Positions 53,234-57,555 of a DNA stretch of 64,000 bases are shown piece by piece. The stretch is from Nitrospirota bacterium (lineage in GTDB: Bacteria > Nitrospirota > Leptospirillia > Leptospirillales > Leptospirillaceae), in the NCBI GenBank assembly GCA_021785195.1, contig JAJYGC010000022.1, positions 1-64,000 of the forward strand. Direction: 5' to 3'. Each line of letters opens with the position of its first letter. Position 1 is the stretch's first letter. The notes beneath the pieces are model-generated. The model made no database searches, was not told where the DNA came from, and saw only the letters and a list, made by a program, of their open reading frames with translations. The translations under genes were made by a program, and so were the position numbers.

Positions 53234-53530
53234 ATGAAAAGACTTGATATCGTTCAGCGTGTCCTCCAAAAATCGAACCGGTCAGAATACAATGCCAAGT
53301 TCATCGGGCAGGTTTTCGATGTATTTCTGGAGGAAATTTCCACGTCTCTCGAAAATGGTGAGGACGTCAAGATTTCCGGATTTGGATCCTTCATTGTCCG
53401 GAAAATCAAAGACCGTCCAGGCAGGAACCCCAAAACAGGCGAGCCTGTTCAGATCCCTGCCCATCATACGGTCCTTTTCCATCCGAGTCGGGCTTTTTTC
53501 AAAAAAGGGCATGGGATAGAAGAAGACTAG
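53234..53530 (+). CDS. Integration host factor / HU-family DNA-binding protein (IhfA-like)
   Basis: This 98-residue DNA-bending protein has N-terminal helices (DIVQRVLQKSN...FIGQVFDVFLEEISTSLENGEDVKISGFGSFIVRKI) and the minor-groove beta-arm DRPGRNPKTGEPVQIPAHHTVLFHPSRAF. The order ihfA-merR-tRNA-Pro is a known arrangement in many proteobacteria, supporting IhfA rather than HU, but the arm motif alone does not decide. It has its own strong promoter inside lpxA. Confidence 0.87.
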   Translation: MKRLDIVQRVLQKSNRSEYNAKFIGQVFDVFLEEISTSLENGEDVKISGFGSFIVRKIKDRPGRNPKTGEPVQIPAHHTVLFHPSRAFFKKGHGIEED

Positions 53531-53539
53531 GGAGTCGGT

Positions 53540-53890
53540 GTGAGATCACAGCTGGTGACTCATCACATCACCCAGAAATACCGGATTGGCGAAGCCTGTC
53601 GCATCCTCGGCATCACAGCGGCCACCCTCCGGTATTGGGAAAAGGTTTTTCCGGTTCTGTCCCCCAAAAAGACCCGTGGGGGACAGAGGGAATACTCCGA
53701 AGAGGACCTTCGGTTTCTCGGAAAGATCATCGACCTCGTCCAGGTCGAAGGTCGCTCCCTCAAGGGAGCCAAGGGCTTTCTCGATGGAACAAACCCCGCG
53801 GAAAGCCCTCAATGGATCGGCGAGATGTTGGTGGAAATCCGCAGGGCCTTGCAGATCATGGAAGAAAACGACTCTGAAATCGGGGCGTAG
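53540..53890 (+). CDS. MerR-family transcriptional regulator
   Basis: This 116-residue protein carries the MerR winged helix-turn-helix at residues about 13-80: [44 protein letters not shown] short helical tail follows without recognisable effector-binding residues. It starts at GTG 53540, nine bases after the ihf stop. Its stop codon TAG (53888-53890) lies inside the tRNA-Pro gene, so the last three codons overlap the tRNA. It belongs to the small MerR type found after ihfA; no target is known. Confidence 0.85.
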
Positions 53891-53957
53891 CGCAGCCCGG
53901 TAGCGCACTCCCTTGGGGTGGGAGTGGTCGAAGGTTCAAATCCTTTCGCCCCGACCA
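53881..53957 (+). tRNA. tRNA-Pro (anticodon GGG)
   Basis: Full cloverleaf of 77 bases. Acceptor stem CGGGGCG (53881-53887) pairs perfectly with CGCCCCG (53947-53953). D stem GCGC/GCGC. Anticodon stem CTCCC/GGGAG with loop TTGGGGT gives anticodon GGG (53915-53917). T stem GAAGG/CCTTT with loop TTCAAAT. A discriminator base and encoded CCA end the gene. Its first ten bases are shared with merR. Confidence 0.95.
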
Positions 53958-54039
53958 GTTCTGACAGCATTCCCCGGTTCGCTGAAGATGGGCTCTTCGC
54001 CGTATCTTTGGGGAACATTGCGATACTCCCAGGAGTTCC

Positions 54040-54840
54040 TTGAACAAACCCCTCATTCTCGTATCCAATGATGACGGAATCTCCTCTGACGGAATCCGTT
54101 TTCTGGAAGAAGCCATGGCCCCCCTCGGGGAGGTCTACGTGGTCGCTCCGGACCAGGAACGCTCCGCGGCCTCGCATGCCCTGACCATCCACAAACCCTT
54201 GCGCATCAACCAAAAGGATCCCACGCATTTTTCCCTCAACGGAACCCCGACGGACTGCATCAACTTCGCCCTGTACGTGATCCTCCCCCGAAAACCCGAC
54301 CTGATCGTTTCCGGGATCAATCACGGAGTGAACCTTGCCGATGATGTGACCTACTCCGGAACGGTCTCCGCGGCATTCGAGGGATCCATCCTGGGCACCC
54401 CCTCCCTGGCATTTTCACTGGAGGTTCCAAGCGATCCCTATTCGCCGTTCCAGATGGAAACCGCGGCCCATTATGCCCGGATCATCGCGGGCCTTCAGCT
54501 GGAACGGCCCCCGGATCCCTCGGTCCTGCTATCGGTCAACATTCCGAACCTTCCACTGGAAAAGGTTCAGGGAATCCGAATCACCCACCTCGGAAAAAGA
54601 ATCCTGAACGAAACGAACATCATCAAGAAGGAAGATCCCCGGGGCAGGCCCTATTACTGGATCGGAATGGGCCCCAAGGACTACGATCCCGATGAAGCCT
54701 CGGACCTCCATGCCATCGACCACGGATATGTGTCGGTCACCCCCTTGCACCTGGACCTGACCCACTACCCTTCGATCCACTCCCTGAAAAAATGGGAGGA
54801 ACAGACCGCTCCGAAGCAGGACGGGACTCCTTTTCCATGA
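54040..54840 (+). CDS. surE: 5'-nucleotidase SurE
   Basis: Stationary-phase survival phosphatase acting on nucleoside 5'- and 3'-monophosphates in the cytosol. The 266-residue protein begins [19 protein letters not shown], with the metal-binding Asp pair at residues 11-12. It has [20 protein letters not shown] carrying metal Asn and the conserved Ser region. Start TTG at 54040 with AGGAG upstream. It overlaps the Pcm-like gene by ATGA, reproducing the surE-pcm pairing. Confidence 0.94.
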
Positions 54841-55397
54841 CACCCGATGTAGAAAAGCCCTTCAAGGACCAACTCGTGCAAGCCATCCTGAAAGACCATC
54901 CGCACCTTTCACCCAGGCTTCTGGCCGCCACCATCCGGCTTCCCCGGTCTTCTTTCTTTCCCGGAGAGCCCCCTGAAAGGCTCTTTTCCCAGTTTCATCC
55001 CAAGGGCTGGGGAGGGAGGATCGCCCCCTCCATCCTGGATGCGCTTTTGATCCTCACGGAACATCCGATCCACCCAGGTGACCGCGTTGCGGTCTTCCGT
55101 CTGACGGATCCCTATTTCCTTCTCCTCCTTCTTGAACTGACCCACCGGGTAGTCCTGGTCGAAGACAGTGAGGATCTGTTCCCCAAAATCCAGGAATCGG
55201 TCCGGGATCTTGGCCATGCCTACATTCCGGTTCTCCCTTCCCTGTCTGGACTGTCCGGACTTCCGTCTCCGGTCCTCTCGATCCTTCACGTCGGGGGAGA
55301 AGGTGAATCCCCCCTGAACGGGAATGGAAACGGCCTTCCGAAGGATCGGATCAAAAGCTGGAAAATAGGTTCCCATCTGGAGAAAATGGAATCATGA
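54837..55397 (+). CDS. Pcm-like protein (L-isoaspartate O-methyltransferase fold) lacking the SAM-binding motif
   Basis: This is a 186-residue protein. It follows the Pcm outline: LVQAILKDHPHLSPRLLAATIRLPRSSFFPG resembles the N-terminal helices and VPRE-type segment. GWGGRIAPSILDALLILTEHPIHPGDRVAVFRLTDPYF stands where Pcm has the Q-T-I-S-Q-P region and motif I E-I-G-T-G-S-G-Y. Motif I is gone (VFRLTDPYF), although the following VVLVEDSEDLFPKIQESVRDLG fits the next strand and helix. It is thus probably not an active SAM methyltransferase. It is coupled to surE upstream and cysS downstream. Homology is my reading, not a search result. Confidence 0.6.
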   Translation: MTPDVEKPFKDQLVQAILKDHPHLSPRLLAATIRLPRSSFFPGEPPERLFSQFHPKGWGGRIAPSILDALLILTEHPIHPGDRVAVFRLTDPYFLLLLLELTHRVVLVEDSEDLFPKIQESVRDLGHAYIPVLPSLSGLSGLPSPVLSILHVGGEGESPLNGNGNGLPKDRIKSWKIGSHLEKMES

Positions 55398-56827
55398 CCA
55401 GACCGGTTTTCTACAATTCCCTCACCCAGCGGCTGACACCCCTTGAACCGGTCAATCCCGACCAGGTCACCCTGTATGTCTGCGGGGTCACCGTCTATGA
55501 CGATTGCCACCTCGGACATGCCAGGAGCCAGACTGTCTTCGACGTGCTGCACCGGCTCCTCCTGAGGTCGGGGTACCGGGTCCGCTATGTCCGGAACATC
55601 ACCGACATCGATGACAAGATCATCCTGAAAGCGCGGGAAACAGGCCGGACGATCGGGGAGATCACTTCCATCTACATCGATTCCTTTCACCGGGACATGG
55701 ATCGGCTCGGGATTCTTCCTCCGACACTCGAACCACGGGCCACGGAATATCTCGACCAGATGATCACGATGATCCAGTCCATGCTCGATTCGGGGATTGC
55801 CTACAAAAAGGGAAATGACATCTATTTCCGGGTCCGAAAATATGCCGCCTACGGAGAGCTATCGCACCAGAAAATCGACGAACTTCGGGCAGGCTCCCGT
55901 GTCCAGGCCGACGAGGACAAGGAAGATCCGCTGGATTTTGCCCTCTGGAAAGGGGCAAAACCCAACGAACCCTTCTTTCCGGCTCCTTTCGGGGAGGGCA
56001 GGCCGGGCTGGCACATTGAGTGCTCTGCCATGTCACTGGCCTTGCTCGGAACCACGATCGACCTCCACGGTGGGGGAATGGACCTCATGTTTCCCCACCA
56101 TGAAAACGAGCGGGCGCAGAGCGAATCGACCACCGGAACAACTTTCGTCAACACCTGGATCCACAACGGATTTGTCACTTTAAACGAAGAAAAGATGTCG
56201 AAATCGATCGGCAACATCTTCCGGATCCGCACTTTTTTCGAAACCTCACCCTTTCCTGAACCGGTCACCAAAGAATGGCTCCGGGCCTTTATGCTCTCCA
56301 CCCATTACCGCTCCCCCCTCGACCTGACGGAGGACTCCCTGGCCCATGCCAAAAATGGCCTGGACAGTCTTTACCTGTTCCGCTCCCTCCTCGAGGAAAA
56401 AGAGGAACCGGCACGGGAAGGTCCACGGACCCAAGCCTTCCTCGAGGCCCTTGGAAACGACCTCGACACCGCCGTCTGCTTCAGAATCCTCCACGAACTG
56501 AAAAACGACCTGAACCCGTTCCTCACCCGTTCGGAAACGCCTCCTCCGGGAATCATCCCGGACGGAAAAGCGCTTTTTCAGGCGGCCAGGGAAACATTCG
56601 GGATCCTTTCTATTCCCCCGGAAGAGTGGATCTACGGAAAAGGCAATCCCCGGTCCGGGGAAGATGCCATTGCACCCGACCAGATCGAATCGCTCGTGCT
56701 GGAGCGGGAGAAGGCCCGAAAACAAAAAGACTTCCCCCGTGCCGATGAAATCCGTGATCGCCTTAAAAAAGCCGGTTTCTTACTGGAAGACAATCCCGGA
56801 GGAATGCCACGAATCAGGAAGATCTAG
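55394..56827 (+). CDS. cysS: Cysteinyl-tRNA synthetase
   Basis: Charges tRNA-Cys. The 477-residue class I enzyme has YVCGVTVYDDCHLGHARS with the zinc-binding Cys and the HIGH-type motif HLGH, RPGWHIECSAMSL and HGGGMDLMFPHHENE (zinc ligands), and KMSKSIGN near residue 267. Length and motif spacing are normal. It starts with an ATGA overlap after the Pcm-like gene. The next gene, a TrmH/RlmB-type methyltransferase, is the partner seen in many genomes. Confidence 0.96.
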   Translation: MTRPVFYNSLTQRLTPLEPVNPDQVTLYVCGVTVYDDCHLGHARSQTVFDVLHRLLLRSGYRVRYVRNITDIDDKIILKARETGRTIGEITSIYIDSFHRDMDRLGILPPTLEPRATEYLDQMITMIQSMLDSGIAYKKGNDIYFRVRKYAAYGELSHQKIDELRAGSRVQADEDKEDPLDFALWKGAKPNEPFFPAPFGEGRPGWHIECSAMSLALLGTTIDLHGGGMDLMFPHHENERAQSESTTGTTFVNTWIHNGFVTLNEEKMSKSIGNIFRIRTFFETSPFPEPVTKEWLRAFMLSTHYRSPLDLTEDSLAHAKNGLDSLYLFRSLLEEKEEPAREGPRTQAFLEALGNDLDTAVCFRILHELKNDLNPFLTRSETPPPGIIPDGKALFQAARETFGILSIPPEEWIYGKGNPRSGEDAIAPDQIESLVLEREKARKQKDFPRADEIRDRLKKAGFLLEDNPGGMPRIRKI

Positions 56828-57555
56828 AAACCCCGGGAGGAATCGGCGGCCTGCACGCCGTTCTGGAGCTTCTCCGGACACAGCCCAGGCGGATCTCAAG
56901 ACTCTACCTGAAAGACGATCCCCATCCGGATACCCGCAGGCAGGAGATCCTCCAACGGGCCCGTCAGAACGGGATTCCGGTCGATTTCCTGCCCCGTCTG
57001 GCTTTGGATCGCATGGCGGGGGACCTTGTGCACCAAGGGGTTTTTGCCACGCTGGAACCCACCCCGCTTCTGGATCTGGATGGATTCCTTGAGGGAAAGG
57101 TCGACCTTCCGTCTCCTCTCGTGGCTGTCGACGGCGTCCAGGATCCCCGGAATCTTGGGGCGTTGCTCAGGACCTGCGACGCGGCCGGAGTACAGGGAAT
57201 CCTCCTGCCCAAAAGAAGGGTGGCCCCCCTCTCCGCAACCTGTGCCAAAACCTCCTCCGGCGCCCTGTTCACATTACCCCTCATCCGTGTCGGGAACCTC
57301 TCCCAAACCCTTCTCTTCCTTAAGAAAAAAGGGTATGGGGTGCTGTCGCTCGCCCTTGGGGGGGAAACCAGATATCGAATCCAGTTTCCGCCACCGCTCG
57401 TTGTCGTGATCGGGGAAGAGGAAAAAGGGGTTTCAAGACCCGTACTGCAACAGTCCGACTGGACGGTCGCGCTGCCCATGTATGGCCACGTCGATTCCCT
57501 GAATCTGTCAGTGGCCGCCGGCATCTTCCTCTATGCCCAGCGCCCAGACCCCTGA
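56809..57555 (+). CDS. 23S rRNA/tRNA 2'-O-methyltransferase, TrmH/SpoU family (RlmB-like), no standard start codon
   Basis: This SPOUT methyltransferase has about 248 residues. The catalytic part is intact: VAVDGVQDPRNLGALLRTC, VVVIGEEEKGVSRPV and ALPMYGHVDSLNLSVAAGIFLY with the deep-knot motifs. The frame upstream encodes a normal substrate-binding domain (GIGGLHAVLELLRTQPRRI...DLVHQGV) starting near 56836. Between the in-frame TAA at 56764 and the TTG at 57004 there is no ATG, GTG or TTG. ACG 56809 (GGAGGA five bases before) or CTG 56851 (GGGAGGA nine bases before) could serve. The start given is a best guess. Using 57004 would delete the domain. Confidence 0.75.
   Translation, partial: TNQEDLETPGGIGGLHAVLELLRTQPRRISRLYLKDDPHPDTRRQEILQRARQNGIPVDFLPRLALDRMAGDLVHQGVFATLEPTPLLDLDGFLEGKVDLPSPLVAVDGVQDPRNLGALLRTCDAAGVQGILLPKRRVAPLSATCAKTSSGALFTLPLIRVGNLSQTLLFLKKKGYGVLSLALGGETRYRIQFPPPLVVVIGEEEKGVSRPVLQQSDWTVALPMYGHVDSLNLSVAAGIFLYAQRPDP

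What the first reader, a model, noticed from the sequence alone, without database searches (positions are those of the whole stretch)
54837..55397. Pcm-like pseudoenzyme fixed between surE and cysS
surE is normally followed by pcm (L-isoaspartyl methyltransferase). Here a gene in the same place keeps the Pcm outline (the LLAATIRLPRSSFFPG segment, the helix APSILDALLIL, the strand VVLVEDSEDLF) but the SAM-binding glycine motif is replaced by VFRLTDPYF, and the Q-T-I-S segment by GWGGRIAP. The gene is intact and coupled by ATGA on both sides, so it is kept rather than decaying. It may be a binding protein for isoaspartyl peptides or a SurE partner.
Basis: partly seen in the sequence, partly recalled or inferred. 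Interest (0 to 1): 0.6.

Follow-up and report, generated by a model that had tools for sequence, protein, structure and literature searches.

The report
Dead repair-enzyme relative kept beside surE
In iron-oxidising Leptospirillum bacteria the gene for a protein-repair enzyme (Pcm) has been replaced, at its usual place after surE, by a descendant that keeps the enzyme's shape but has lost the parts that hold the methyl donor and the damaged protein, yet selection still preserves it, which suggests a new non-enzymatic job.

Summary
The gene at 54837-55397 (186 aa; called X here) is real. It lies between surE and cysS with ATGA overlaps on both sides. X alone matches no Pfam model, but it descends from Pcm. 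The profile of six orthologues matches Nitrospirota Pcm (hhalign E about 1e-10). Every relative read outside the Leptospirillum family is intact Pcm. AlphaFold models of two orthologues 30% identical both match Pcm/PIMT structures first (twelve best PDB chains each).
Motif I, G-T-G-S-G-Y, has become (R/A/S)-(P/L)-T-D-P-Y; TDPYFL is invariant in all six. The QTIS substrate loop carries an invariant Arg instead, the DG motif is lost and the C-terminal sheet reduced. dN/dS is 0.13-0.18 (0.07-0.13 for residues 1-135), so X is not decaying. No Pcm was found in the family, although 107 of 123 sampled Nitrospirota genera have it. X occurs in four of five genera; in the fifth (g2) cysS follows surE directly.
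X is thus a maintained PIMT-fold pseudoenzyme. The closest precedent is CI-PIMT, the dead PIMT subunit of Paracoccus complex I, whose cofactor-blocking Arg59 aligns with X's invariant Arg61. Isoaspartyl binding is disfavoured; the partner (SurE or other) is unknown.

The parts
54040..54840 (+). surE, 5'/3'-nucleotidase SurE, upstream neighbour
   Evidence: PF01975 E 2.7e-59; NCBIfam SurE equivalog, 301 bits over a cut-off of 233
54837..55397 (+). X: Pcm/PIMT-derived pseudoenzyme, 186 aa; stop codon included
   Evidence: orthologues; Pcm homology; fold; selection
54837..54840 (+). ATGA overlap of surE stop and X start
   Evidence: sequence read directly
55005..55031 (+). residues 57-65 GWGGRIAPS, replacing the isoaspartate-binding GxGQTISxP loop of Pcm; Arg61 and Pro64 invariant in six orthologues
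   Evidence: Arg61 aligns with Arg59 of CI-PIMT
55092..55121 (+). residues 86-95 VFRLTDPYFL, replacing SAM motif I (EIGTGSGYQ); TDPYFL invariant in six orthologues; modelled as the loop after strand 83-87 and the start of helix 92-101
55158..55163 (+). residues 108-109 VE; Glu109 is the retained acidic residue at the end of strand 2
   Evidence: invariant in A1 and in Pcm
55394..55397 (+). ATGA overlap of X stop and cysS start
   Evidence: sequence read directly
55394..56827 (+). cysS, cysteinyl-tRNA synthetase, downstream neighbour
   Evidence: PF01406 E 1e-120

Best explanation
X descends from the Pcm (PIMT) gene that follows surE in other bacteria, and is now a pseudoenzyme. Shown: it keeps the Pcm N-terminal helices and the first half of the Rossmann sheet in sequence, and the fold in two models. 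Its glycine-rich SAM loop is turned into an invariant T-D-P-Y-F-L segment at the start of a helix. Its substrate loop carries an invariant Arg where Pcm has Q-T-I-S. It evolves under purifying selection. Inferred: no glycine loop is left for SAM, and Arg61 (as Arg59 in CI-PIMT) plus the TDP turn fill the cofactor site, so X neither binds SAM nor methylates isoaspartate. Inferred further: it now works as a stable protein-binding subunit, made together with SurE and CysS, as the dead CI-PIMT does on Paracoccus complex I. Descent and loss of catalysis: about 0.93. Non-enzymatic binding or scaffold role: about 0.55. The partner is not identified; SurE, whose gene overlaps that of X in three of the four genera with X, is only the first candidate to test (about 0.2).
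For: Orthologue profile against Pcm profile: hhalign probability 96.7, E 3e-10; 100 shuffles give at most 10.5 against 59.2. The same profile finds a Pcm as best PDB chain (2yxe, E 6e-5). In 296 Nitrospirota genomes its non-family matches that I read (23 loci plus 5, some of them the same gene) were all Pcm with QTIS and E(I/V)GTGSG. It did not ring on the TrmI or ArsM methyltransferases of the family's own genomes. Fold: pLDDT 80.0 and 82.9, the twelve best PDB chains are Pcm/PIMT in both models, best 1.5e-7 and 1.3e-8. Same motif losses in six orthologues down to 29% identity. dN/dS 0.184 (CI 0.10-0.28) and 0.125 (0.06-0.20); residues 1-135 0.131 and 0.066. Synteny: true pcm follows surE in other Nitrospirota. 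Precedent for a dead PIMT as structural subunit with Arg blocking the cofactor: PMC11522691; the aligned Arg.
Against: No biochemical or interaction data. The retained acidic Glu109 is a ribose-binding position in SAM-dependent methyltransferases of this fold (general knowledge), which could point to a remaining ligand. X is absent from genus g2, so it is dispensable for surE and cysS there. Window X alone has no Pfam hit even at E 10. The C-terminal 50 residues are poorly conserved, and the last part is weakly modelled in the window protein. Only six sequences were available.
Confidence: 0.72

Rival explanations
1. X is a new enzyme or small-ligand binder: the old SAM pocket was rebuilt, with invariant Arg61, Thr90, Asp91, Tyr93, Arg104 and the retained Glu109 forming a new site.
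For: Several charged or polar residues are invariant in X but not in Pcm (R61, T90, D91, T102, R104), and E109 is kept.
Against: TDP sits at the N-terminus of helix 92-101, where such residues are explained by helix capping (inference). The C-terminal part, which would build the rest of a pocket, is the least conserved (dN/dS 0.30-0.40 after residue 135).
Confidence: 0.2
2. X is a relic: an inactivated pcm on its way out, its frame kept only because it lies between translationally coupled surE and cysS.
For: Genus g2 has no X at all. X evolves faster than its neighbours (30% identity between g1 and g3 against 65% for SurE and 62% for CysS).
Against: dN/dS far below 1 in two independent pairs (upper confidence limits 0.28 and 0.20); TDPYFL and the other invariant residues kept at 29% identity; lengths 186-190 aa and no stops in six genomes. 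Coupling would keep the frame, not the residues.
Confidence: 0.06
3. X is an isoaspartyl-peptide binding protein that flags damaged proteins without methylating them.
For: Pcm descent; functional Pcm is missing from these genomes, so damage handling by other means is conceivable.
Against: The T and S of QTIS that hydrogen-bond isoaspartate (PMC11522691) are not kept as a pair in any of the six, and the C-terminal region is reduced.
Confidence: 0.05
4. X still binds SAM in an unusual way and is an active methyltransferase.
For: Fold and the acidic residue after motif I are kept.
Against: All three motif I glycines are replaced (by Arg/Ala/Ser, Thr and Pro), and the acid at the end of strand 1 is gone.
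Confidence: 0.02
5. The resemblance to Pcm is chance or only the general Rossmann fold.
For: No Pfam or single-sequence PDB match.
Against: Specific Pcm matches by profile, by fold and by gene order.
Confidence: 0.01

Closest known systems
Pcm / PIMT, protein-L-isoaspartate O-methyltransferase (PF01135)
   Same: N-terminal helices with the PRxxFxP segment, Rossmann order, acidic residue after motif I, gene order after surE, fold (Foldseek E 1.5e-7)
   Different: No glycine motif I, no QTIS, no DG motif, reduced C-terminal sheet; not recognised by PF01135
CI-PIMT, supernumerary PIMT subunit of Paracoccus denitrificans complex I (PDB 8qby chain t; PMC11522691)
   Same: Catalytically dead PIMT; Thr and Ser of QTIS lost, DG motif lost, an Arg at the loop that obstructs the cofactor site (Arg59; aligns with X Arg61); third-best fold match of the g3 orthologue
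   Different: CI-PIMT keeps a glycine-type motif I (GCGYGY) and its genome keeps a free PIMT; X lost motif I as well and no PIMT was found in its genomes. Complex I is present in both X-bearing and X-lacking genera
RPA2580 of Rhodopseudomonas palustris
   Same: Inactive annotated PIMT with altered substrate and DG positions (as cited in PMC11522691)
   Different: Alphaproteobacterial paralogue beside other PIMTs; details not tested here
PCMTD1 (human; adaptor associated with cullin-RING ligases)
   Same: PIMT-fold protein without detected isoaspartyl methyltransferase activity (PMC11514484)
   Different: PIMT domain within a longer protein (358-residue PDB chain 9oma), eukaryotic; retention of its SAM site is from memory, not tested

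Membership tests
Pcm / PIMT (PF01135) | Single-protein match to the curated model | tested here: not met
   No hit at E 10; PF01135 genome search finds nothing in the window's genome
Pcm / PIMT (PF01135) | Homology at profile level | tested here: met
   hhalign E 3e-10, shuffle control, reciprocal Pcm profile finds X at E 7e-4
Pcm / PIMT (PF01135) | PIMT fold | tested here: met
   Two models, twelve best PDB chains all Pcm/PIMT
Pcm / PIMT (PF01135) | SAM motif I (D/E)xGxGxG | tested here: not met
   V/L-x-(R/A/S)-(P/L)-T-D-P in all six
Pcm / PIMT (PF01135) | GQTIS substrate loop | tested here: not met
   x-R-x-x-P in all six
Pcm / PIMT (PF01135) | DG motif that contacts SAM | tested here: not met
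   No DG at the aligned place in any of six
Pcm / PIMT (PF01135) | C-terminal strands with FVPLxG | tested here: not met
   Shortened, no FVP motif; a strand and a hairpin in the g3 model only
Pcm / PIMT (PF01135) | Methylation of isoaspartyl residues | not testable with these tools
   needs an assay
PIMT-fold pseudoenzymes (CI-PIMT type) | PIMT fold with catalytic and cofactor residues lost, under selection | tested here: met
PIMT-fold pseudoenzymes (CI-PIMT type) | Arg obstructing the cofactor site | tested here: inconclusive
   Invariant Arg61 aligns with Arg59 (weak alignment E 0.04); geometry not inspected
PIMT-fold pseudoenzymes (CI-PIMT type) | Stable subunit of a larger complex | not testable with these tools
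   Complex I gene nuoC occurs with and without X, so no profile support for that partner

The most novel reading that the evidence does not exclude
In Leptospirillum the repair enzyme itself was converted in place into a non-catalytic regulatory or structural partner, for example of SurE, at the price of losing isoaspartate repair altogether: a lineage in which a damage-repair gene was exchanged for a binding protein at the same operon position.
Probability: 0.2. Interest if true: 0.65.

Novelty: new variant of a known kind. Interest (0 to 1): 0.5.

Why it matters
Pseudoenzymes of the PIMT fold were known from alphaproteobacterial complex I and from eukaryotic PCMTD proteins, where an active paralogue remains. 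Here the pseudoenzyme sits at the place of the original gene and no active enzyme was found, so it gives a clean case of in-place loss of catalysis with retained selection. It also makes testable how these acid-dwelling bacteria manage without isoaspartate repair, and whether SurE has protein partners. No held paper was found that describes it.

Tried and rejected
Single-sequence searches of Pfam, NCBIfam and PDB gave nothing. PF01135 hits in the family looked like surviving Pcm at first, but the reading frames lack QTIS and look like ArsM-type and TrmI-type methyltransferases by eye (two of the thirty loci gave no frame in that script, one gave a wrong frame); the Pcm profile found only weak matches to such proteins and to X itself. 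Complex I partnership was considered because of CI-PIMT: nuoC is present in X-bearing and X-lacking genera alike, and X has no strong positive charge (net -1 to -6), so it is not supported. Phage records hold no relative. Relic by decay rejected on dN/dS. A consensus promoter scan found no sigma-70 site in 53400-57000, uninformative. The cited paper on R. palustris PIMTs is not held.

Full report
What is there. The window comes from a Leptospirillum-type Nitrospirota genome: relatives of X lie on records titled Leptospirillum sp. and Nitrospirae bacterium. At 54837-55397 is an intact gene of 186 codons, called X here, with an ATGA overlap to surE before it and to cysS behind it. SurE and CysS are ordinary members of their families.

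Is X related to Pcm? X alone gives no Pfam, NCBIfam or PDB match even at E 10. Six orthologues from the family were aligned. Their profile matches a profile of five Nitrospirota Pcm proteins with hhalign E 3e-10 over 144 columns; in my repeat the score is 59.2 against a maximum of 10.5 in 100 column-shuffled controls. The profile's best PDB chain is a Pcm (2yxe, E 6e-5). Searched against 296 genomes of the phylum it finds, outside the family, further loci at E 1e-9 to 1e-3. All 28 loci whose frames I read (23 and 5, a few being the same gene twice) carry QTIS and E(I/V)GTGSG, that is, they are intact Pcm. It does not match the TrmI-type and ArsM-type methyltransferases of the family's own genomes, so the signal is specific to Pcm and not to the Rossmann fold in general.

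Fold. AlphaFold2 with five sequences gave pLDDT 80.0 and pTM 0.77 for the window protein, and 82.9 and 0.81 for the g3 orthologue, which is 30% identical. In both cases the twelve best PDB chains are Pcm/PIMT proteins, with best E 1.5e-7 and 1.3e-8. For the g3 model the third-best is CI-PIMT (8qby chain t).

What has changed. Column by column, V-L-E-I-G-T-G-S-G-Y-Q of Pcm stands against V-A-V-F-R-L-T-D-P-Y-F. All three glycines and the acid at the end of strand 1 are gone, Tyr is kept, and TDPYFL is invariant in six of six. In the models the segment is the loop after strand 83-87 and the beginning of helix 92-101; a Thr-Asp-Pro start suits a helix cap (inference). The GxGQTISxP loop has become G-x-x-x-R-x-x-P with invariant Arg61 and Pro64. 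The acidic residue after strand 2 (Glu109) is kept. The DG motif is lost and the last part is shortened. In the window model the last 30 residues are unreliable; in the g3 model they form a strand and a hairpin.

Distribution. X is found in the two genomes of genus g1, two of three of g3 (in the third, 72% complete, surE was not found either), and the single genomes of g4 and g5. Ten g2 genomes hold surE; in those read, cysS follows surE directly, and none of the g2 genomes has X elsewhere. A SurE+CysS tree puts the X-bearing genera together and g2 beside them (84/77 support, not strong), so either one loss of X in g2 or conversion of pcm to X after the split fits. A pattern scan of one genome for each of 84,980 species found only four X loci, all from this group (close relatives of the window may be left out there). 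No true Pcm was found in the 21 family genomes, several of which are incomplete but four of which are at least 90% complete, while a strong Pcm occurs in 174 of 246 sampled Nitrospirota genomes and 107 of 123 genera. True pcm follows surE directly in several other Nitrospirota, so X sits at the likely ancestral pcm place.

Selection. NG86 dN/dS for X is 0.184 (95% bootstrap 0.10-0.28) between the two g1 genomes and 0.125 (0.06-0.20) between the two g3 genomes; for residues 1-135 it is 0.131 and 0.066. SurE gives 0.135 and 0.052, CysS 0.101 and 0.045. Synonymous sites are near saturation, so exact values are rough, but X is clearly constrained. The part after residue 135 is looser (0.30 and 0.40).

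How it works. Shown: Pcm descent, loss of the cofactor and substrate motifs, purifying selection, no other Pcm found. Inferred: no SAM binding, no methylation. The best-documented parallel is CI-PIMT of Paracoccus complex I (PMC11522691): Thr and Ser of the substrate loop lost, DG lost, Arg59 obstructing the cofactor site, no cofactor density, substrate access blocked by the complex. Arg61 of X falls on Arg59 in the profile alignment (E 0.04, so weak). X goes further, since CI-PIMT still has a glycine motif I. By analogy X is most likely a structural or regulatory protein-binding subunit. Its partner is unknown. SurE is the first candidate because of gene order, but g2 shows that SurE can do without X. 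Complex I has no special claim because nuoC is in both groups.

The observation and the pseudoenzyme reading hold. Isoaspartyl binding is unlikely because the residues that grip isoaspartate are replaced. SurE partnership is neither supported nor excluded.

Verdict. A maintained PIMT-fold pseudoenzyme restricted, as far as searched, to Leptospirillum relatives, unusual because it replaces rather than accompanies the active enzyme: a new variant of a known kind.

Noticed in passing
Leptospirillum family genomes G000-G020: No intact Pcm was found in any genome of the family, whereas 107 of 123 sampled Nitrospirota genera have one; many members of family f10 listed also lack a strong match.
   Followed up: partly
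L007, L008, L009, L077 and other loci: Many Nitrospirota Pcm proteins begin with a hydrophobic, signal-like segment, and some genomes carry two Pcm copies (e.g. G034, G049, G106), which suggests an exported Pcm besides a cytoplasmic one.
   Followed up: no
window 53881-53957: A tRNA-Pro (GGG) gene lies between the MerR-type regulator and surE.
   Followed up: no
window 54909-55376, minus strand: A 155-codon open frame runs antisense through X; nothing suggests it is a gene.
   Followed up: no
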